Assembly (NCBI GenBank): GCA_947302675.1
Contig: CAMYWI010000036.1
Span: 1-8,933, forward strand
Direction: 5' to 3'
Source: an uncultured Selenomonadales bacterium
Lineage (GTDB): Bacteria > Bacillota_C > Negativicutes > Selenomonadales > Selenomonadaceae
DNA: 8,933 nucleotides
The notes under the pieces: model-generated
Database searches by the model: none
Told to the model about the DNA's origin: nothing
What the model saw: only the letters and a program-made list of their open reading frames with translations
Part shown: piece by piece, positions 1-8,933 of the stretch
Numbering within the stretch: position 1 is the first letter of the stretch
Layout of the letters: the number at the start of each line of letters is the position of its first letter
Made by a program: the position numbers and the translations under genes

Positions 1-1158
1 ATCGACTGCGCGGTCAATGTCTTCTTGGTTCTTAAAGCGAGCCAAAGTTTCTTCAACATTTCTGAAATCAATGTATTTACCCTGCGCGTCGTGCAATTCT
101 TTACTTCCGATAAGACCGGCAAAAATATTGTTGACAAATTCTTGGGGCAAAATATTTCTGCCACTGAGGAATTTTTTTATCTCCTTCTCCTTGCAAAGAG
201 ATTCTCTTACGCTGTAATCAAAGATAAAGAAACTCGCGCTAAGTGTCGCCAAATAACCAAATTCATTATTCACGCCGTTGTAACATGACACATTAAAGCA
301 AAGATATTTATCGTTAGCATTTATGACATTGCCGATCGAATCTGTGCAAAGAAAATTTATTCCCGCCTCTGCAAATTCTTTTCCAAAAAATCTCTCGATA
401 TAACGCCGATAATTATGATAGTCGCCGACTTCTCCGCGCCGATTGCTACCGCGCTTGAGATGATATTTCCTGCAAAAATCTTCTGTAAAGCATCCGTCAA
501 GTGTCGTGAAAAATTTAAGCATACATTCTTCTAACTTCGGCTCGGATCTGCAAAGCTCGTTGATAATTTCGATAACTTCCTCATACAATGATTCCAATTT
601 TTTTACGCAGGAAGAATTTCCTGATATTTGTTCCAAGCAAGCGTCAAACCAATGAATAAGCTCCGAACGAAACGCTACATGGTCAATTTTGTCCGAACGA
701 ATGAGAGGATAGCGAATGAACGAACCTTTTTTGTAGCCAGAATGGTTTGCGCTTTTCTTGGATGGAAAATATCCTTCCGGTGACAAGTAATAGAGCACGG
801 GTGATTCACTGAAAAAATGTGTTTCATGGTATTTTTTGGCTTCGAGCCAATAATCGTCGCATTGCTTGGGTTGATCATCCGCCTCAATCTTGACTTCAAT
901 CGGTATGAAACGCTTATTCGTGATGATTACCAAATCTATTCGTTTTCGTTTGTTCTCTATGAACTGCATATGATAGCGATCTTCTTCGGGAGCTTTGTGG
1001 TCATCTACCAAAACCCGTGCGCTGTCCAACTCTTCCGCCGTCATGTTGAGGCGCAGAACATGTTTATCGAATAATTCAAGATAAAGTTTCCCGCACTCAG
1101 GATTTTTCTTAGGTGAAAGAAGTTCGTACATTGAATAACATAATTCGCGTTCAGTCAT
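1..1158 (-). CDS. PD-(D/E)XK nuclease-superfamily protein (PDDEXK_4-like), 3' end beyond the window
   Basis: An open frame runs from ATG at 1158 to the left edge without a stop, giving 386 residues so far. The start has an AAAGGAGG ribosome site (1167-1174) eight bases upstream. Around residues 73-103 it reads RIDLVI, then PIEVK, then ADDQ and a downstream Tyr. D75, E88 and K90 form the D-x(n)-ExK catalytic signature of the PD-(D/E)XK fold, followed by Q96 and Y103 as in the PDDEXK_4 group of prokaryotic proteins of unknown role. Family knowledge suggests a metal-dependent nuclease; the substrate is unknown. The rest is rich in charged and aromatic residues with no membrane segment or signal peptide. 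It lies alone downstream of metQ and beyond a strong terminator, so it is probably transcribed separately. No methylase or recognised defence partner is visible. Fold assignment is fairly confident; activity and role are not. Confidence 0.8.
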   Translation of the reverse strand, partial: MTERELCYSMYELLSPKKNPECGKLYLELFDKHVLRLNMTAEELDSARVLVDDHKAPEEDRYHMQFIENKRKRIDLVIITNKRFIPIEVKIEADDQPKQCDDYWLEAKKYHETHFFSESPVLYYLSPEGYFPSKKSANHSGYKKGSFIRYPLIRSDKIDHVAFRSELIHWFDACLEQISGNSSCVKKLESLYEEVIEIINELCRSEPKLEECMLKFFTTLDGCFTEDFCRKYHLKRGSNRRGEVGDYHNYRRYIERFFGKEFAEAGINFLCTDSIGNVINANDKYLCFNVSCYNGVNNEFGYLATLSASFFIFDYSVRESLCKEKEIKKFLSGRNILPQEFVNNIFAGLIGSKELHDAQGKYIDFRNVEETLARFKNQEDIDRAVD

Positions 1159-1180
1159 TTTGAAAACCTCCTTTGAAGAT

Positions 1181-1208
1181 ATTTTACACGACGGCAAAAA
1201 AAAATCAA
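1181..1208 (-). promoter_or_regulatory. Possible promoter of the nuclease-like gene
   Basis: On the minus strand TTGATT (1203-1208) is followed after 16 bases by TAAAAT (1181-1186), just upstream of the ribosome site. The -35 box overlaps the terminator hairpin and T-tract of metQ, so part of the match comes from that T-run. It is a weak candidate, offered because the terminator should isolate this gene from metQ transcription. Confidence 0.3.
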
Positions 1209-1236
1209 CCTGCCCGCATTTGCAGGAAGGCTGATT
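1196..1236 (-). terminator. Intrinsic terminator of metQ
   Basis: Read on the minus strand, a stem of about 15 positions (outer arm AATCAGCCT, inner CCTGC paired with GCGGG, one mismatch and two G-U pairs) closes an AAAT loop. It is followed directly by a run of nine T. It begins 8 bases after the metQ stop codon, the expected place for Rho-independent termination. Confidence 0.9.
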
Positions 1237-1244
1237 GAAATTTT

Positions 1245-2081
1245 TCAAAACGCGGGAACAATCGCGCCTTGATATTTGTCCTCGATAAATTTCTTGACCT
1301 TGTCGGATTTAATCGTCTCCAAGAGCTTTTTAATCTCGTCGCGATTCTCGTCGCCGTCGCGCACCGTGATTATGTTGACGTAGGGCGAATCCTTATCCTC
1401 GATAAAGAGCGCGTCCTTCATGGGATTTAAATCGGCGTTGAGCGCAAAGTTCGTGTTGATAATCGAAATGTCGACGTCCTCAAGCGTGCGCGGGAGCTGA
1501 GCCGCCTCGACTTCTTGAATCACCAAGTTTTTGGAGTTCTCGGCAATGTCTTGAACAGTCGCAGTTTCCTTAACGCCGTCCTTGAGCTTGAGCAAGTTCG
1601 CTTTTTGCAAAAGGAGCAAAGCGCGTCCGCCGTTGGTCGGGTCGTTCGGGATTGAAACCGTCGCGCCGTCGGCAAGCTCGCTCAAATCCTTAATCTTCTT
1701 GGAGTAAACGCCCATAGGCTCGACGTGAACGCCGCCCGCATTCTTGAGTTTCATTTCCGTATGCTCTTTAACAAAGTCATTGAGATACGGCTCGTGCTGG
1801 AAAAAGTTCGCGTCAAGCTCCTTGTCGTTGAGCGCAATATTTGGCTGCACGTAGTCATTGAACTCGACGATTTCAAGATTGATTCCCTGCTCCTTGAGAT
1901 CGGGCTTAATCTGCTCCAAAATCTCCGCGTGAGGAGCGGGCGTCGCGCCGATTTTCAAAGTCGTCTCGGCACCTGCCGCCGGTTTATCGCCGTCGGTTTT
2001 GGCAGGAGCATCGCCGCCGCCGCAACCCGTGATTAAAAGCGTCGCCGCCAAAGTCAGCGCGGCAAAAAATTTTCCTCGCAT
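1245..2081 (-). CDS. metQ: MetQ/NlpA-family methionine-binding lipoprotein of an ABC transporter
   Basis: A 278-residue substrate-binding lipoprotein that captures methionine (often D- and L-forms) and delivers it to the MetN-MetI ABC importer. The N-terminus has a basic start, a hydrophobic stretch and the lipobox I-T-G-C, so C20 would be lipidated after signal peptidase II cleavage. A Gly/Ala/Asp/Lys linker follows, then the mature NlpA fold beginning LKIGATPAPHAEIL. Typical MetQ segments include DYVQPN, the DANFFQHEPYL block, and NDPTNGGRALLLLQ near residue 150. Length is normal for the family. ATG at 2081 is preceded by AAAGGAGG (2092-2099). It has its own promoter and terminator, so it is monocistronic; no metN or metI lies beside it. 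The short leader leaves no room for an S-box or T-box. Closely related proteins can bind other small ligands, so the substrate is inferred from family. Confidence 0.93.
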   Translation of the reverse strand: MRGKFFAALTLAATLLITGCGGGDAPAKTDGDKPAAGAETTLKIGATPAPHAEILEQIKPDLKEQGINLEIVEFNDYVQPNIALNDKELDANFFQHEPYLNDFVKEHTEMKLKNAGGVHVEPMGVYSKKIKDLSELADGATVSIPNDPTNGGRALLLLQKANLLKLKDGVKETATVQDIAENSKNLVIQEVEAAQLPRTLEDVDISIINTNFALNADLNPMKDALFIEDKDSPYVNIITVRDGDENRDEIKKLLETIKSDKVKKFIEDKYQGAIVPAF

Positions 2082-2116
2082 AAAAAATTTGCCTCCTTTG
2101 ATTTACTACGCCGTGA

Positions 2117-2144
2117 AGTATATCACACAAAAAATAAATTTCAA
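2117..2144 (-). promoter_or_regulatory. metQ promoter (sigma-A type, extended -10)
   Basis: On the minus strand TTGAAA (2139-2144) is separated by 16 bases from TATACT (2117-2122). The -10 box is preceded by TG plus one base, giving an extended -10. Predicted transcription would start near 2110, leaving a leader of only about 30 bases before the metQ start. Confidence 0.75.
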
Positions 2145-2148
2145 GACG

Positions 2149-2177
2149 TTGCTAAAGTTCGCGCCGTGAATTAAAAT
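2149..2177 (+). promoter_or_regulatory. Promoter of the first DUF6056-like gene
   Basis: TTGCTA (2149-2154), a 17-base spacer and TAAAAT (2172-2177) lie just upstream of the ribosome site AGGAGG (2191-2196). The -35 box is four bases from the -35 box of the divergent metQ promoter. The spacer and downstream bases closely resemble those of the sirtuin promoter at 3773-3801, which strengthens the call. Confidence 0.6.
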
Positions 2178-2203
2178 TCTAAAAAACTTGAGGAGGCTTT
2201 TGC

Positions 2204-3595
2204 TTGAGATATTTTTTACGCCCGACGATTTTATTTGCAGTCTTCACGGGGATTTTCTTTGTGCGGACGATTTTAATGCCTCTCGCCTACGACGATTACG
2301 CCTACGCTTTTATTTGGGACGGGGCGCACGATGGCAATTTGCAAATGATGATGATTGGCTCGCCCGAAGTCGAGACTCGCGAGCGCGTCGATTCGTTCGG
2401 AGATATTTTTGATTCGATGTGGTCGCACTACTTCACTTGGGGCGGAAGGATTTTTGCTCATTCGCTCGTGCAATTTTTTATGTGGATTGGCAAACCCGCC
2501 TTCGACGTGGCGAACACGCTAGTTTTTATCGCGCTTGTCTTGTCGATAATCAAACTCGCCGCCGCGCAGTTCAAGCTTTCGCGCAACGTCTTGCTGTGGA
2601 TTTTTTTCAGCCTGTTCATTTTGTCGGCGTGGTCAATGACGACGATGTTTTGGCTGACTGGCTCTTGCAATTATATGTGGATGTCACTCGTGCAGTTGAT
2701 TTTCCTCGTGCCTTACGTCAACGCCCTGCGCTTAAACAACTCACCGCAAAAATTTTGGCTGATAATTCCGCTTGGGCTAATGGCGGGCTGGTCGAACGAG
2801 GCGGGCGCGTTGGCTACAATCTGCCTGACAATCTTTTTAATGAAACTTTGCAAGGCGCGGAAAATTTTTCGCTCGTGGATGACGGTGGGGCTGGTCGCAA
2901 TGGCAATCGCCTGCGCGTTCATGATGTTTTCGCCGGGAAATTTGGTACGCATGGAATTTTCTCACCCGCATTTTGTCTACAGCTTAGAAGTTTTCCTCGA
3001 CCACTTGACGACGGAATTCCCGCGCGTCGTCGGCGCGAATGTGATTGTTCTTTTGCCCGTGCTGATTTATTTTTTGCGAAGAGATTTTTTGGGACGACTA
3101 AACACGACAGAAATTTTAATGTTGGCGTTCGCGGCAACAAGTTTCCTTGTGCCAGTGATAATGTTGTTCTCGCCGGAATTTACTTTGCGCGTGTCGATAA
3201 CGTCAATGGTCTTCGCATTGATAGCGTCGGCGAATGCACTCTTTGAACTTGAGCGACGCCCGATTAAAATCCTTTCCGAAAAAATTCTGCGCGGGGTCTC
3301 GGCAAGTTTAATCGCCGTGTTCGTGGCGTACTGCGCAACGCTGATTTATATGGACGTTCAATTCTTTAAAGCGACGTGTCAAACGGAAGAATTTTTGCAA
3401 ACGCAAAAGGACGTTGAGCTGATAAAGTTGCAACCCGTTCCAATTAGTCATCGTTTCGACAGAATTCACGGCGACAGGGTGACGCGATATTACATGGCGC
3501 ATTTCGGCGGCATCGACACGAATCCGAAGGACTGCCGCAACGTCATTGCCGCGCAGTACTACGGCATTAAAGCTATCGTCGCCGTCAACGATTAA
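2204..3595 (+). CDS. DUF6056-like polytopic membrane protein, possible GT-C-type glycosyltransferase (paralogue 1)
   Basis: A 463-residue integral membrane protein. A TTG start follows AGGAGG by seven bases. Hydrophobic segments are visible at about 6-28, 102-120, 129-147, 155-175, 184-213, 224-244, 275-292, 302-322, 332-348 and 366-384, so about ten membrane passes. A soluble C-terminal tail of about 80 residues ends in an AQYYG...VAVN motif. The first extracytoplasmic loop begins with D30-D31-Y32 (LAYDDYAYAFIWDG). Other landmarks are HYFTWGGRIFAH (75-86), WSNEAGA (196-202), SPGN (243-246) and LFSPEF (321-326). An acidic pair after the first helix is typical of GT-C glycosyltransferases, and this layout fits the DUF6056 group of uncharacterised membrane proteins. 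A role in surface glycan assembly is inference. Its close paralogue lies two genes downstream. No intrinsic terminator follows; the gap holds hairpin repeats instead. Confidence 0.75.
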   Translation: MRYFLRPTILFAVFTGIFFVRTILMPLAYDDYAYAFIWDGAHDGNLQMMMIGSPEVETRERVDSFGDIFDSMWSHYFTWGGRIFAHSLVQFFMWIGKPAFDVANTLVFIALVLSIIKLAAAQFKLSRNVLLWIFFSLFILSAWSMTTMFWLTGSCNYMWMSLVQLIFLVPYVNALRLNNSPQKFWLIIPLGLMAGWSNEAGALATICLTIFLMKLCKARKIFRSWMTVGLVAMAIACAFMMFSPGNLVRMEFSHPHFVYSLEVFLDHLTTEFPRVVGANVIVLLPVLIYFLRRDFLGRLNTTEILMLAFAATSFLVPVIMLFSPEFTLRVSITSMVFALIASANALFELERRPIKILSEKILRGVSASLIAVFVAYCATLIYMDVQFFKATCQTEEFLQTQKDVELIKLQPVPISHRFDRIHGDRVTRYYMAHFGGIDTNPKDCRNVIAAQYYGIKAIVAVND

Positions 3596-3627: not shown

Positions 3628-3742
3628 GGGGCGGCATGGACGCCGCCCCACGACGCCGCGTTTCAACAGGATGTTGAAGCGGCGACGCCCCCGCGAGGCG
3701 GGTTTCTTTGCATACTTTCTTTGCCCGGTCAAAGAAAGTATG
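3628..3742 (-). repeat. Composite palindromic repeat, copy A (four hairpins)
   Basis: Four inverted repeats in a row. 3628-3649 is an 8-bp perfect stem (GGGGCGGC) with a 6-base loop. 3654-3684 has CGCCGC and TTCAAC arms with a 2-base bulge and a 5-base loop. 3690-3702 is a 5-bp stem (CCCGC/GCGGG) with a 3-base loop. 3711-3742 is a perfect 13-bp stem (CATACTTTCTTTG) with a 6-base loop. Read on the minus strand, the same order of elements (A/T-rich hairpin, CAAAGAAA spacer, GGCGT-GCCGCTT hairpin) recurs at 8832-8933. None of the hairpins is followed by a T-run, so they are not ordinary terminators. A related arm, GCAAAAGAAAAGTATG, lies at about 3750-3765. Confidence 0.85.
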
Positions 3743-3772
3743 TTCACATGCAAAAGAAAAGTATGAGAAACA

Positions 3773-3824: not shown

Positions 3825-4565
3825 ATGACTGATATAGAAAAACTCGCCGAGATTTTGTCGAAGAGTGCAAGCGCGGTATTCTTCGGCGGCGCGGGCATGT
3901 CGACCGAGTCGGGCATACCCGATTTTCGGAGCGCGTCGGGCATTTACAATCAAAAGCTCAACCAAACTTTTTCGCCCGAAGAAATGGCGTCGCACAGATT
4001 TTTCGTGACTCACCCCGAAGAATTCTTTGCTTTCTATCGCGAACGATTTGTTTATCTCGACGCCAAGCCCAACGCGGGACACCTTGCGCTTGCGGAGTTG
4101 GAGCGGCGCGGAGTTTTGAGCGCGGTCGTCACGCAGAACATTGACGGACTTCACCAGCTCGCCGGTTCAAAAGTTGTCTACGAACTGCATGGCTCGATTC
4201 GGCGGAGTTACTGCGTTCAATGCGGCGCGAAGTACGACGTTGATTTTATTTTGAACAACGTCCCGATTCCGCACTGCGAACATTGCGGCGGCATTGTCAA
4301 GCCCGACGTTGTTCTTTACGGCGAAAATCTTGACGACGCCACGATTTCCAATTCAATTCGCGCGATTGCTGAGGCAGACACGCTAATTGTTGGCGGCACG
4401 AGTTTAATTGTCTATCCTGCGGCGGGGCTGATTGATTATTTTCGCGGGCGGCATTTGGTTTTGATAAATAAGACTGCCACGCGAGCCGACGCCAACGCGG
4501 AGCTTGTGATTCGCGAGCCGATTGGCGAGACTTTGTCGCGTGCGGTAAAGGAGGCGTTCGGTTGA
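3825..4565 (+). CDS. NAD-dependent protein deacylase, Sir2 family (CobB-like)
   Basis: A 246-residue cytoplasmic sirtuin that removes acyl groups from protein lysines using NAD, producing nicotinamide and O-acyl-ADP-ribose. All hallmarks are present and intact: the NAD-binding GAGMSTESGIPDFRS at 22-36, TQNIDGLH at 103-110, catalytic His122 in the ELHGS motif, a structural zinc site C130-x2-C133 and C151-x2-C154, and GTSL at 191-194. Length is normal for bacterial single-domain sirtuins. The ATG start is fixed by GGAGG eight bases upstream. The stop overlaps the TTG start of the next gene by 4 nt, and the ribosome site for that gene lies within the sirtuin coding end, so expression is probably coupled. 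The odd feature is context: it sits between two paralogous membrane-protein genes. No acetyl-CoA synthetase or acetyltransferase partner is visible. Deacylase identity is firm; the preferred acyl group and targets are unknown. Confidence 0.95.
   Translation: MTDIEKLAEILSKSASAVFFGGAGMSTESGIPDFRSASGIYNQKLNQTFSPEEMASHRFFVTHPEEFFAFYRERFVYLDAKPNAGHLALAELERRGVLSAVVTQNIDGLHQLAGSKVVYELHGSIRRSYCVQCGAKYDVDFILNNVPIPHCEHCGGIVKPDVVLYGENLDDATISNSIRAIAEADTLIVGGTSLIVYPAAGLIDYFRGRHLVLINKTATRADANAELVIREPIGETLSRAVKEAFG
4547..4554 (+). promoter_or_regulatory. Ribosome site inside the sirtuin gene for the downstream TTG start
   Basis: AAAGGAGG lies seven bases before TTG 4562, wholly within the last sirtuin codons. 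Together with the 4-nt TTGA overlap this points to translational coupling. It supports the TTG start rather than a later in-frame ATG. Confidence 0.8.
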
Positions 4566-5995
4566 CTTTTCTGCAGTACATCAATCAGACGCTGAACTCG
4601 TCGCGGTCGCTGATACTCTTTGCAATTTTCGCGGGCTTTTTCTTCGTGCGGACGACGCTTTTGCCGCTGAGCCATGACGATTACGCCTACGCTTTTATTT
4701 GGGACGGCGAGCACGGCGGCAACTTGGAGCAAATGCAATTCGGTTCGGAGGAAGTTGAAACTCGTCAGCGCGTCGAGTCATTGAACGACATTTTTCAATC
4801 AATGGAGTCGCATTACTTCACGTGGGGCGGAAGGATTTTCGCGCACGGGCTGGCGCAGTTTTTTATCTGGCTGGGCAAGCCGGTCTTCGACGTGGCGAAC
4901 ACGATAATGTTTATCTTCCTCGTGCTGACGATAATCAACCTGTCGAACACGTGGCTGAAAATCTCGCGGCAAGCGTTGGTTTGGATTTTCGTGAGCTTGT
5001 TCCTGTTCGCGGCGGCGTCGCTGATGAGTTTGTTTTGGCTGACTGGCTCCTGTAATTATATGTGGATGTCGTTCTTCCAACTGTTTTTCTTGACGCCGTA
5101 CGTCAAAGCGTTGCGGTCGGGCGAGGCGGGCAACTCAATCCTAAACTTTTTGCTGATGATATTGCTTGGACTAATGGCGGGTTGGTCGAACGAGGCGGGC
5201 GCGTTGGCGACGGTTGCCTTGACGATTTTTTTAGTCGTCATGTGCAGGGCGCGAGGAATTTTCCGCGTGTGGATGGTCGCGGGATTGGCGGCGTTGATAA
5301 TCGGCTGCGCGTTCATGATACTTGCACCGGGCAACTTCGCGCGGCTGGAGTTTGCTCACCCGAATTTTATTTACACGTCGGCGATTTTCTTTGAACACTT
5401 AACGAACGGCTTTGACAGAGTAATTGCGGCAGATTTAATCGCGCTAATTCCGATGTTCATTTATTTTTTAATGCGCAAGTCATCGGGATTGAACGTCGCG
5501 GAAATTTTAATGTTGGCATTCACGGCGGCGGGCTTGCTCGTGCCGACGGCAATGCTTTTCTCGCCCGAATTCAACTTGCGGGTGTCTGTGCCGTCGCTGG
5601 CGTTTATCTTGGTTGCGTCGACGAGCGCGATTTTGGAAATGGAGCGGCAACATTTAAAGCCGACACTGAACTTGCCCAAAAGATTTCTGCGCGGCGTCTC
5701 GATAACTTTAACGACGCTGATGATTGCCTACTTCGTGACTTTTATCTACGTCGACATATCGATATTCAATGCGGCGCGGCGGCAAGTCCGCTACATTGAG
5801 CGCAACACGCACCTTGACCCAATCCCTATGCCCGTCATGCCGATTCGTCATCGCTTTGAAGAAATTCACGGCGACCGAACCGCAGTTCCCTACCTTAAAC
5901 ATTTCGCGGGCGTTATCGAAAACCCGAACTTTTGCTTGAATATGCTGGTTGCTCAATATTACGACGTGCGTCATGTTGTTGCCGTCAATGAATAG
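4562..5995 (+). CDS. DUF6056-like polytopic membrane protein, possible GT-C-type glycosyltransferase (paralogue 2)
   Basis: A 477-residue integral membrane protein, by eye well over half identical to the product of 2204-3595 and co-linear with it throughout. It has about ten hydrophobic segments (for example 16-37, 109-128, 138-160, 195-225, 236-256, 287-303, 313-333, 343-356, 379-398). The same landmarks recur: D39-D40-Y41 in the first loop, HYFTWGGRIFAH (84-95), WSNEAGA (208-214), APGN (255-258), LFSPEF (332-337) and a tail ending AQYYD...VAVN. The N-terminus is about nine residues longer than in paralogue 1. The TTG start overlaps the sirtuin stop. The methyltransferase follows after 15 bases, so all are probably on one transcript. 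Conservation of the loop acidic pair in both copies suggests both are functional, perhaps with different donors or acceptors (inference). Confidence 0.75.
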   Translation: MTFLQYINQTLNSSRSLILFAIFAGFFFVRTTLLPLSHDDYAYAFIWDGEHGGNLEQMQFGSEEVETRQRVESLNDIFQSMESHYFTWGGRIFAHGLAQFFIWLGKPVFDVANTIMFIFLVLTIINLSNTWLKISRQALVWIFVSLFLFAAASLMSLFWLTGSCNYMWMSFFQLFFLTPYVKALRSGEAGNSILNFLLMILLGLMAGWSNEAGALATVALTIFLVVMCRARGIFRVWMVAGLAALIIGCAFMILAPGNFARLEFAHPNFIYTSAIFFEHLTNGFDRVIAADLIALIPMFIYFLMRKSSGLNVAEILMLAFTAAGLLVPTAMLFSPEFNLRVSVPSLAFILVASTSAILEMERQHLKPTLNLPKRFLRGVSITLTTLMIAYFVTFIYVDISIFNAARRQVRYIERNTHLDPIPMPVMPIRHRFEEIHGDRTAVPYLKHFAGVIENPNFCLNMLVAQYYDVRHVVAVNE

Positions 5996-5997
5996 TT

Positions 5998-6003
5998 AGG
6001 AGG
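5998..6003 (+). promoter_or_regulatory. Ribosome site for the methyltransferase TTG start
   Basis: AGGAGG begins three bases after the preceding stop codon and lies seven bases before TTG 6011. It supports a TTG start giving a 253-residue protein. The other envelope genes of the cluster also use TTG with the same seven-base spacing. Confidence 0.75.
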
Positions 6004-6010
6004 TAAAAAT

Positions 6011-6772
6011 TTGCGAGACATCAACAAATACATGCAAGAACACATGCACGGCGAAACGGCCGACTTCGAGCGAACACAGGAAAAATATCGTCTTCGCAAG
6101 CTCATTGAGTTACTGAATAAATGCGACCGTCGCAGTCTCTTGGAGGTCGGTTGCGGTTTGGATTCTTTGGCATGTCATGTGAACGGCTGGAATAAATATA
6201 CTTTGGTTGAGCCTTCCGAACGTTATTTGAATCATGCCAAGATAATGGTCTCGGGGGGGGGGGACTGTAAATTCATTCACGGACTTTTTGAGGACTCGTT
6301 CGATATTTTGAGTGGCGAATCTTACAGCGTCATTGTTATTTCAGGGGTACTTCATGAAGTCGAAGAACCTAAAAAGTTCCTCGATACCGCGATTTGTTTG
6401 AGCAAACCCGACACGACGATCATCCTTACCGTTCCAAACGCTAACAGCTTCCACAGGGTGCTTGCTTACGAGAGCGGGCTTATCAAGAACGTTTCCGAAT
6501 TGAGCCAAACCAATCTCTGCTATCAAATTAATAATGTGTACGACATGGAAGAACTTATGACGCTTGTTAATGAAGTTGCCGCTACGCGGAATAAGCAGGC
6601 GATCTTTCTTGAGCGCGGTAGCTATTTTGTCAAACCCTTCACGCATAAGCAGATGACGCAATGCTTGAGTTTCGGTATCTTCGACGAAAAAATCTTGGAC
6701 GGTTTGAACAACATGGTTAAATATATGCCCGACTTGGGCTCGGAAATTTATCTTGTTTTTAAAACGCATTGA
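6011..6772 (+). CDS. Class I SAM-dependent methyltransferase with an in-gene G11 tract, currently in frame
   Basis: A 253-residue protein with a Rossmann-type methyltransferase core. Motif I is LLEVGCGLDSLA (43-54), binding S-adenosylmethionine. The acidic end of strand 2 is LVEPSERYL (65-73, E67 likely contacting the ribose). The motif-IV region VIVISGVLHEVEEPKKFL (107-124) resembles small-molecule, sugar and lipid methyltransferases of the UbiE/Methyltransf_11-type group. There is no DNA-methylase (N/D)PP(Y/F/W) motif, so a DNA target is unlikely. The acceptor is unknown; the neighbouring membrane genes suggest a surface sugar or lipid (inference). Codons 81-85 (S-G-G-G-D) are built on 11 consecutive G. 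With 10 G, translation would end after about 99 residues; with 12 G, after about 86, in both cases before motif IV. TTG start with AGGAGG seven bases upstream; hinT follows after 15 bases. Confidence 0.85.
   Translation: MRDINKYMQEHMHGETADFERTQEKYRLRKLIELLNKCDRRSLLEVGCGLDSLACHVNGWNKYTLVEPSERYLNHAKIMVSGGGDCKFIHGLFEDSFDILSGESYSVIVISGVLHEVEEPKKFLDTAICLSKPDTTIILTVPNANSFHRVLAYESGLIKNVSELSQTNLCYQINNVYDMEELMTLVNEVAATRNKQAIFLERGSYFVKPFTHKQMTQCLSFGIFDEKILDGLNNMVKYMPDLGSEIYLVFKTH
6253..6263 (+). repeat. Homopolymeric G11 tract in the methyltransferase gene
   Basis: Eleven consecutive G span the end of codon 81 to the start of codon 85. Runs of this length slip readily during replication and act as ON/OFF switches in surface-modifying genes of, for example, Campylobacter. 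The present length keeps the frame open. A change of one base either way brings a stop within about 15 codons. Confidence 0.95.
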
Positions 6773-6787: not shown

Positions 6788-7135
6788 ATGGCTGATTGTA
6801 TTTTTTGCAAGATTGCGGCGGGCGAAGTCCCTTCGCAGAAAGTTTACGAAGACGACAGCGTTATCGCGTTCAAGGACTTGTCGCCCAAAGCTCCCGTGCA
6901 CGTGCTGATTGTCCCGAAGAAACACATTCAAAGCGTCGCGCACTTCCAGGCGGAGGATAAAGAACTCGCCGCGCACATTTTTGTTGAAGTGGTGCCGAAA
7001 CTCGCCGCTGAGCTTGGAGTTGCTGACGCGGGCTTTCGTCTCGTCATAAACACGGGCGACGACGGCGGACAAACCGTTGGGCATTTGCACGTTCACTTAC
7101 TCGGCGGTCGTAAAATGACTTGGCCGCCCGGCTGA
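6788..7135 (+). CDS. hinT: HIT-family nucleotide-binding protein, HinT-like
   Basis: A 115-residue histidine-triad protein of the Hint branch, a small cytoplasmic dimer that hydrolyses AMP-lysine and other purine nucleoside phosphoramidates. The start is typical (DCIFCKI, with C4 and C7 able to help bind zinc with H46). The catalytic triad HLHVH is at 99-103 (H99, H101, H103), preceded by GQTVG and followed by LLGGRKMTWPPG, the usual Hint C-terminus. Length matches bacterial HinT. ATG is preceded by GGAGG at 6776-6780, seven bases upstream, and the gene starts 15 bases after the methyltransferase stop, so it is probably the last gene of the operon begun by the sirtuin. Its link to the envelope genes is likely positional. 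Identity is firm; the physiological substrate is generally unknown. Confidence 0.95.
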   Translation: MADCIFCKIAAGEVPSQKVYEDDSVIAFKDLSPKAPVHVLIVPKKHIQSVAHFQAEDKELAAHIFVEVVPKLAAELGVADAGFRLVINTGDDGGQTVGHLHVHLLGGRKMTWPPG

Positions 7136-8716: not shown

Positions 8717-8781
8717 ACTTGGTTAACCGATTTTGTCATATATTTTATTTCGCTTGGTAATATCTTTAGTTTATGCTGATT

Positions 8782-8853
8782 AACAAACTTTTCTTTTGCA
8801 GTTTGAACTTACTTTTCTTTTGCAATTTGAACTTACTTTTCTTTTGCTCGCCC
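8782..8853 (+). repeat. Three tandem 24-base repeats
   Basis: Units 8782-8805, 8806-8829 and 8830-8853 share the core CTTTTCTTTTGC. Units 1 and 2 differ at a few bases. Unit 3 diverges at its last six bases, where it becomes the left arm and loop of the adjoining hairpin. The units thus look like amplified copies of one arm of the composite repeat. Confidence 0.85.
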
Positions 8854-8933
8854 AAAAGAAAAGTAAGCAAAAGAAAAAGGCGTAGCCGCTTGAACTTCCT
8901 GTTCAAATGGCGAACGCTTGCGGTGCCAGCGTT
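8832..8933 (+). repeat. Composite palindromic repeat, copy B (reaches the window edge)
   Basis: A perfect 15-bp stem (CTTACTTTTCTTTTG) with a 6-base loop at 8832-8867, a CAAAAGAAAAA spacer, then a second hairpin with TTGAAC (8890-8895) paired to GTTCAA (8901-8906) around a TTCCT loop. A third inverted repeat, AACGCT/AGCGTT, lies at 8913-8933 and ends at the edge. Order, spacing and much of the sequence equal copy A read on the minus strand. The second stem has G where copy A has C, with the opposite base changed to match, so pairing is kept. Confidence 0.85.

What the first reader, a model, noticed from the sequence alone, without database searches (positions are those of the whole stretch)
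6253..6263. G11 tract in a methyltransferase gene: a candidate phase-variable switch in an envelope-type operon
Eleven uninterrupted G lie inside codons 81-85 of a SAM methyltransferase. At roughly even base use, a given run of 11 G is expected only about 0.004 times in both strands of a window this size. One base lost gives a stop after about 99 residues, one gained after about 86, both before motif IV. Poly-G tracts that switch surface-modification genes are well known in Campylobacter and a few other groups. Finding one next to two paralogous envelope-type membrane genes suggests a reversible surface methylation switch in this lineage. The downstream hinT could also be affected through polarity.
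Basis: partly seen in the sequence, partly recalled or inferred. Interest (0 to 1): 0.78.

Follow-up and report, generated by a model that had tools for sequence, protein, structure and literature searches.

The report
Poly-G switch in a methyltransferase gene
A bacterium of the family Selenomonadaceae carries a run of eleven G's inside a methyltransferase gene, and close relatives of the gene are found in nature in all three reading frames, so the run very probably acts as a random on/off switch, likely for a cell-surface sugar modification.

Summary
The G11 tract is real (6253-6263; the only G or C run of 6 or more in the window). It lies in a class I SAM methyltransferase gene (6011-6772), in a loop before beta-strand 3. 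Changing the tract by -1 or -2 predicts products of 99 and 85 residues. A database search with the pre-tract piece, limited to short proteins, returned two proteins of 99 and 85 residues; they are identical over 79 pre-tract residues and leave the tract in the two OFF frames. The window and two other alleles (92% and 87%) are ON. A divergent homologue has G12 in the same loop and is split. Related genomes hold many G tracts, often in glycan genes, 7 sites shared between species. In 17 of 20 relatives read, DUF6056 and hinT lie together without the methyltransferase. DUF6056 models as a GT-C glycosyltransferase fold, so a surface glycan is the likely target. Switching rate, reversibility and substrate are not shown. 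The kind of system is known; I found no report for Negativicutes.

The parts
6253..6263 (+). G11 tract, the proposed slippage switch (codons 81-85; loop between helix 70-80 and strand 86-90)
   Evidence: AlphaFold model
6011..6772 (+). class I SAM methyltransferase gene (TTG start), open (ON) in this sequence, 253 aa
   Evidence: Methyltransf_23, E 3.3e-12, above cut-off; fold match 2p7h/2p7i, TM 0.73-0.82
5998..6003 (+). AGGAGG, presumed ribosome-binding site of the methyltransferase, at the point where relatives have that of hinT
6308..6311 (+). TTGA: the stop (TGA, 6309) of the -1 frame overlaps an in-frame TTG (codon 100); natural ORFs P0241 (99 aa) and P0003/P0004 (154 aa) match this end and this start
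4562..5995 (+). DUF6056 membrane protein, second copy, predicted GT-C-type glycosyltransferase, directly upstream
2204..3595 (+). DUF6056 membrane protein, first copy (56% identical to the second)
3825..4565 (+). Sir2-family protein between the two DUF6056 genes
6788..7135 (+). HIT-family protein (hinT) with its own GGAGG, downstream

Best explanation
The G11 tract is a contingency switch. DNA polymerase slips on it during replication and gains or loses a G. With the frame set as here the cell makes a 253-residue SAM methyltransferase. In the other two frames translation stops after 85-86 or 99-100 residues, so most of the enzyme is missing and it is OFF. The enzyme probably methylates a sugar of a surface or periplasmic glycan made with the neighbouring GT-C-type (DUF6056) proteins. 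A clonal population would then hold cells with and without the methyl group. Shown: the tract, the reading frames, natural alleles in all three frames (as protein), and the position of the gene at a DUF6056-hinT junction that lacks it in relatives. Inferred: slippage as the cause, reversibility, the glycan substrate and the benefit (for example escape from phages or host antibodies).
For: (1): predicted OFF products are 99 and 85 aa; the search with the 84 pre-tract residues returned two proteins, P0241 (99 aa) and P0242 (85 aa), identical over 79 pre-tract residues and ending GGGTVNSFTAFSRSRSIF and EGGL, the two OFF frames of the DNA behind the tract (window: GGGTVNSFTDFLRTRSIF-stop and GGGGL-stop). 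(2): P0001 (92%, AGGGN, 10 member sequences) and P0002 (87%, AEGD, 3 members) are ON; P0003 and P0004 start at the TTG that overlaps the OFF stop. (3): the G536:C67 homologue has G12 at the same loop with residues 1-76 and 77-251 in different frames; G391 has G9 (split) and G624 G7 (open over residues 58-249) at a second site near residue 101. (4): the tract codes for a loop where homologues vary in length. (5): 44, 88 and 28 G runs of 9 or more in G536, G435 and G572, and 6-34 in each of the 10 relatives with the best DNA match; in G536, 32 of 42 examined tracts lie in long ORFs, 17 of these split. (6): 7 tract sites shared between species at 67-77% DNA identity, lengths for example 9/14/11 and 9/11/12. 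(7): 14 of 30 scanned tract ORFs of G536 hit glycosyltransferase, sugar-modifying or methyltransferase families. (8): DUF6056 models as a GT-C-type fold.
Against: No reads and no DNA of the close alleles could be seen; their tract lengths are inferred from protein. The pre-tract search could only return proteins of about 46-147 residues, so it says nothing on how common OFF is. P0241, P0242, P0003 and P0004 come from contigs of at most 721-1173 bases. P0002 and P0242 encode Glu inside the tract, so not all alleles have a pure tract. Homologues in G399 and G504 have no tract; the copy in G536:C87 has no tract and is cut by a TGA. No ortholog above 47% identity was found in 189 family genomes, so this switch is not conserved across the family. 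G11 runs also occur in 91 of 299 genomes of a wider control (88 of 292 without the 7 that are in the family), and genomes with 10 or more overlapping G11 words are equally frequent: 19 of 189 against 30 of 299 (my count). Some runs sit at contig starts and look like sequencing artefacts. Tract genes also include non-glycan families and many without a family. The substrate is not known.
Confidence: 0.8

Rival explanations
1. Decay: the methyltransferase was gained by horizontal transfer and is being lost; the out-of-frame alleles are ordinary frameshift mutations in a homopolymer, without selection for switching.
For: Gene absent between DUF6056 and hinT in the relatives read; lower G+C (0.445) than its neighbours (0.510, 0.549); Glu inside the tract in P0002 and P0242; a homologue in G536 carries a nonsense codon.
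Against: ON alleles that differ from the window by 8 and 13% keep the whole enzyme open; a homologue 29% and 47% identical in its two parts has G12 at the same loop; tract sites are held between species at 67-77% DNA identity.
Confidence: 0.1
2. Artefact: the tract length in the window and the OFF alleles come from sequencing or assembly error at poly-G.
For: Poly-G runs at contig starts in some genomes look like sequencing artefacts; the OFF alleles come from short contigs.
Against: The window tract is internal with intact flanks and an open frame; tracts align at the same site in different species; P0242 is OFF although its encoded tract is interrupted and short; a passage of the PhasomeIt paper (PMC6321876) holds that the poly-G tracts of Campylobacter can be read accurately on Illumina, though poor assemblies are less reliable.
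Confidence: 0.06
3. Recoding: RNA polymerase or ribosome slippage on the G tract makes some full-length enzyme from every tract length, so the tract sets a dose and is not a genetic switch.
For: Homopolymer runs, chiefly of A or T, are described as slippery for RNA polymerase and ribosomes (passages of PMC3711429); the TTGA stop-start overlap could allow re-initiation.
Against: Re-initiation at codon 100 would lack the N-terminal part with the usual SAM-binding motif (position recalled for class I enzymes); the alleles themselves differ in frame; this tract is G, not A or T.
Confidence: 0.04

Closest known systems
Poly-G contingency loci of Campylobacter, including SAM-dependent methyltransferases such as UbiE_3 (G8-10) and Cj0170 (G8-13) (PMC6321876, passages seen)
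   Same: G tract of similar length inside the ORF, same broad enzyme class among the targets, interrupted or shorter tracts in some homologues
   Different: Other phylum (Selenomonadaceae); homology of this enzyme to the Campylobacter ones was not tested; no switching measured here
Replication slippage at an intragenic G tract controlling pili in Bifidobacterium breve (PMC9187656, abstract seen)
   Same: G-tract ON/OFF switch in a gut commensal
   Different: Controls pilus genes in another phylum, not a methyltransferase
Helicobacter saguini homologue of the methyltransferase (L004)
   Same: 33% identical enzyme, with G14 and C16 tracts about 0.8 and 2.5 kb downstream
   Different: The tracts are in neighbouring genes, not in the methyltransferase
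ECA1738 of Pectobacterium atrosepticum (PDB 2p7h, 2p7i)
   Same: Nearest solved structure by sequence profile and by fold (TM 0.73-0.82)
   Different: 22% identity; the entry title gives only a methyltransferase family, no substrate

Membership tests
Simple-sequence-repeat contingency locus (slipped-strand phase variation) | Homopolymer of about 8 or more inside the ORF, beyond chance | tested here: met
   G11, expected 0.0025 per window
Simple-sequence-repeat contingency locus (slipped-strand phase variation) | Gain or loss of a unit truncates the product | tested here: met
   85-100 residues instead of 253
Simple-sequence-repeat contingency locus (slipped-strand phase variation) | Alleles in different frames exist in nature | tested here: met
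   ON: window, P0001, P0002; OFF: P0241, P0242; seen as protein only
Simple-sequence-repeat contingency locus (slipped-strand phase variation) | Reversible, high-frequency switching within one clone | not testable with these tools
   no reads, no culture
Simple-sequence-repeat contingency locus (slipped-strand phase variation) | Phenotype changes with tract length | not testable with these tools
   needs an assay
Class I SAM methyltransferase, Methyltransf_23 | Pfam score above curated cut-off | tested here: met
   46.9 bits against 27
Class I SAM methyltransferase, Methyltransf_23 | Methyltransferase fold | tested here: met
   model pLDDT 88.6; 2p7h TM 0.73/0.80
Phasevarion (phase-variable DNA methyltransferase) | DNA-methyltransferase domain | tested here: not met
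   Pfam at E <= 0.001 lists five Methyltransf_ families (23, 31, 11, 12, 25), no DNA-methylase family
GT-C glycosyltransferase (for DUF6056) | GT-C transmembrane fold | tested here: met
GT-C glycosyltransferase (for DUF6056) | Catalytic acidic residue after the first transmembrane helix | tested here: inconclusive
   D39 and D40 invariant in 25 aligned sequences, just after helix 2-33; catalytic role is recalled from GT-C enzymes, not tested

The most novel reading that the evidence does not exclude
A group of Selenomonadaceae (diderm Bacillota, known here mostly from metagenome genomes and probably gut or rumen dwellers) runs a Campylobacter-scale phasome: up to tens of G-tract switches per genome, many in glycan-building genes, conserved in place between species but varying in length. 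The window's horizontally gained methyltransferase is one recently added switch. In the related genus Quinella this could explain why cells of one sample show two surface types.
Probability: 0.5. Interest if true: 0.65.

Novelty: new member of a known kind. Interest (0 to 1): 0.52.

Why it matters
Phase variation by homopolymer slippage has been studied mainly in pathogens. Natural ON and OFF alleles in Selenomonadaceae suggest that surface variation by slippage is also part of the life of commensal diderm Bacillota, probably against phages or host antibodies. It also warns that gene presence in metagenome-derived genomes can overstate function, because many tract genes read as split, and that split genes there need not be assembly errors. 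The switch can be tested directly in existing read sets.

Tried and rejected
Own genome: none is held, so relatives were reached step by step. Plasmids (protein and DNA) and viral contigs gave nothing related. The DNA-methylation (phasevarion) reading was set aside because no DNA-methylase family is hit. I considered P0003 and P0004 as simple cut contigs; they start at the TTG overlapping the OFF stop, but this stays ambiguous. I considered poly-G as a special feature of this family: the control shows G11 in 91 of 299 genomes against 107 of 189, so it is more frequent but not exclusive, and heavy users are equally frequent (19 of 189, 30 of 299). Seven handles of the control (G033, G148, G178, G203, G228, G252, G276) are also in the family; three of them have a G11 word. 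Promoter and terminator scans gave numbers near the shuffled mean. My residue offsets for P0003/P0004 were shifted and those figures are not used. My notebook first called the internal start codon 98; it is codon 100. Where the window was sampled is not known from any call; 'gut or rumen' is inferred from a Quinella hit and recall.

Literature: Negativicutes with phase variation, 4 papers, listing seen; Selenomonas with phase-variation terms, 20 of 39 listed, none of the 20 holding Selenomonas; contingency loci with three genera, 10 of 543 listed, none of these ten holding 'contingency loci'; rumen with slipped-strand mispairing, 1 paper; Clostridia or Lachnospiraceae with poly-G, 10 of 399 listed; DUF6056, no paper. 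The review PMC11868660 has none of the words Firmicutes, Bacillota, Selenomonas, Veillonella, poly-G, rumen (term search). PMC9585023 (Quinella): term search without 'homopolymer' or 'frameshift' and section 10 read. Listings were cut and the library lacks most subscription journals, so this is weak evidence of absence.

Full report
OBSERVATION. The window has eleven G at 6253-6263 and no other G or C run of six or more. From base composition, 0.0025 such runs are expected on both strands. The tract is in frame in ORF 6011-6772, a 253-residue protein that scores above the Pfam cut-off for Methyltransf_23. Losing one or two G gives products of 99 and 85 residues, gaining one or two gives 86 and 100.

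WHAT THE GENE IS. An AlphaFold model from a 23-sequence alignment (mean pLDDT 88.6) has a class I methyltransferase fold; the tract codes for the loop between helix 70-80 and strand 86-90. Homologues vary in length at this loop, so changes of three bases should be tolerated. The nearest solved structure is 2p7h/2p7i, a SAM methyltransferase without a named substrate (22% identity, TM 0.73-0.82).

NATURAL ALLELES. A search of about 5.8 billion proteins with the whole enzyme found 234 relatives, 120 listed. Four are close: P0001 (92%, full length, AGGGN at the tract), P0002 (87%, 252 aa, AEGD), and P0003 and P0004 (154 aa, 90 and 89%). The other 116 listed are at most 44% identical. A second search with only the 84 residues before the tract returned two proteins: P0241, 99 aa, and P0242, 85 aa. 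By the tool's length rule it could return only proteins of about 46-147 residues, so it cannot tell how common OFF is. Both lengths match predicted OFF states. The two are identical over the 79 compared pre-tract residues, and their tails (GGGTVNSFTAFSRSRSIF and EGGL) are the two other frames of the DNA behind the tract; in the window these read GGGTVNSFTDFLRTRSIF-stop and GGGGL-stop. So all three frames occur in nature. P0003 and P0004 begin at the equivalent of TTG codon 100, which overlaps the TGA that ends the 99-residue product (TTGA, 6308-6311). They look like second halves of OFF alleles, but cut contigs cannot be excluded. Tract lengths of these alleles are inferred, because only protein could be seen. 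The Glu in P0002 and P0242 means that these tracts are interrupted.

A HOMOLOGUE WITH THE SAME SWITCH. No whole genome is held for the window. The window's own DUF6056 is 97% identical to an unnamed protein and 89% to one named Selenomonadaceae bacterium. Matches to the methyltransferase at E <= 0.001 occur in 11 of 189 genomes, several of them weak. In G536:C67 the homologue has G12 at the same loop, with residues 1-76 and 77-251 in different frames: OFF. In G391 the homologue has G9 near residue 101 and is split; in G624 the same site has G7 and is open over residues 58-249. A further G536 copy (C132) has G7-T-G5 near residue 100 and is split. Against this, the G399 and G504 homologues have no tract, and the G536:C87 copy has no tract and is cut by a TGA.

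TRACTS IN RELATED GENOMES. G11 or longer occurs in 107 of 189 family genomes and in 27 of the 30 genomes with the best DUF6056 DNA match (529 bits or more; zero in G573, G577, G582). In a wider control it occurs in 91 of 299, of which 7 genomes belong to the family as well. Genomes with 10 or more overlapping G11 words are equally frequent in both: 19 of 189 and 30 of 299 by my count. So heavy users are not confined to this family; some of these runs lie at contig starts and may be artefacts. Counting each run of 9 or more once, G435 has 88, G536 44, G572 28, and the ten relatives with the best DNA match have 6-34. In 400 kb of G545 there are 5 G/C runs of 9 or more against 0.14 (second-order) or 0.30 (first-order) expected. 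Those contigs were known to hold tracts; the unbiased figure is 20 in the 2.8-Mb genome, against about 1-2 when the rates are scaled up.

WHERE THE TRACTS LIE. I fetched 42 of the 44 tracts of G536. By a simple rule 32 are inside long ORFs, 15 in one open frame and 17 split; 5 are at an end of or beside an ORF, 2 have no long ORF and 3 are at contig edges. Lengths are 9-16, commonest 13. For six nearer relatives I fetched 84 tracts (12 of 12 in G521, 20 of 20 in G545, 30 of 34 in G569, 9 of 31 in G581, 9 of 9 in G524, 4 of 6 in G573): 62 are inside long ORFs, 40 open and 22 split. The rule can be misled by antisense ORFs. Twenty of the 84 fall into 7 groups in which the tract sits at the same place in different species at 67-77% DNA identity, with lengths such as 9/14/11, 9/11/12 and 9/10/11; one group is 10/10.

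WHICH GENES. Pfam was run on the longest ORF of 30 of the 42 G536 tracts. Nineteen have a family at E <= 0.001. Fourteen of these are glycosyltransferases (GT2 twice, GT9, GT90, GT92 twice), a pyruvyl transferase, TupA, FdtA, DegT or methyltransferases (FkbM twice, types 23 and 24; the type 23 hit is below its cut-off). Five are others (citrate lyase ligase, DUF1919, radical SAM, an aminotransferase, an acetyltransferase). Eleven have no family. Of 20 ORFs taken from the 84 tracts of relatives, 12 have a family above cut-off; 8 of these are of glycan type (GT8 twice, GT9, GT61, epimerase, pyruvyl transferase, FkbM, hexapeptide transferase), the rest being RTX repeats, transketolase, DUF1919 and a type I DNA methylase-specificity protein. 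Two have only hits below cut-off and six none.

HOW IT LIKELY WORKS. Replication slippage changes the tract by one G, which sets the enzyme ON or OFF. OFF products lack most of the enzyme. What would show switching is a mix of tract lengths in error-corrected reads of one population.

COMPARISON. It works like the poly-G contingency loci of Campylobacter. Passages of the PhasomeIt paper (PMC6321876) list SAM-dependent methyltransferases with variable G tracts (lengths between 7 and 13) and describe shorter or interrupted tracts in homologues that do not vary. A G-tract ON/OFF switch is also reported in Bifidobacterium breve (PMC9187656, abstract). Membership in the class of contingency loci is met for tract, frame and natural alleles; reversibility and phenotype could not be tested. 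I found no report for Negativicutes in the searches named under Tried and rejected. Section 10 of the Quinella paper (PMC9585023) describes cells of one sample with and without a surface layer; its authors mention growth stage or species for the differing surfaces. Phase variation is my suggestion.

VERDICT. A real and probably working phase-variable gene, of a known kind, in a group where I found none reported.

Noticed in passing
L207 (G536:C198:1-6500), tracts at 947, 2271, 3589, 4908: Four tracts G14, G13, G12 and G11 in a row, each about 150 codons before the end of its ORF; the first and last ORFs hit glycosyltransferase 92. Three are in one open frame and one is split.
   Followed up: partly
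L248 (G545:C90:42800-45200), ORF 675-2399, minus strand: A run of 9 G (C on the coding strand) lies inside a 575-residue ORF with N6 DNA methylase and type I specificity domains: a possible phasevarion.
   Followed up: no
window 2204-3595 and 4562-5995: DUF6056, of unknown function in Pfam, models as a GT-C-type fold, with invariant Asp39-Asp40 after the first helix.
   Followed up: partly
L186 (G536:C67): The homologue with G12 in the same loop stands about 2.7 kb from a flagellin gene and directly before an ATP-grasp ligase gene.
   Followed up: partly
G479:C9, G534:C30 and C31, G082:C26 and others: Very long G runs or runs at contig starts (2089 overlapping G11 words in G479) look like sequencing artefacts in public genomes.
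   Followed up: no
L240 and L241 (G545): Near-identical stretches (97% over 201 bases) carry tracts of G10 and G12 in one genome.
   Followed up: no
window 3708-3770 and 8780-8880: By eye: short repeats of the type CTTTTCTTTTGC and AAAGAAAAGTAAG in stretches without an assigned gene, partly as inverted copies.
   Followed up: no
window 1-1158, minus strand: A PD-(D/E)XK nuclease-superfamily protein (PDDEXK_4) with lower G+C (0.40) than the other genes measured.
   Followed up: no
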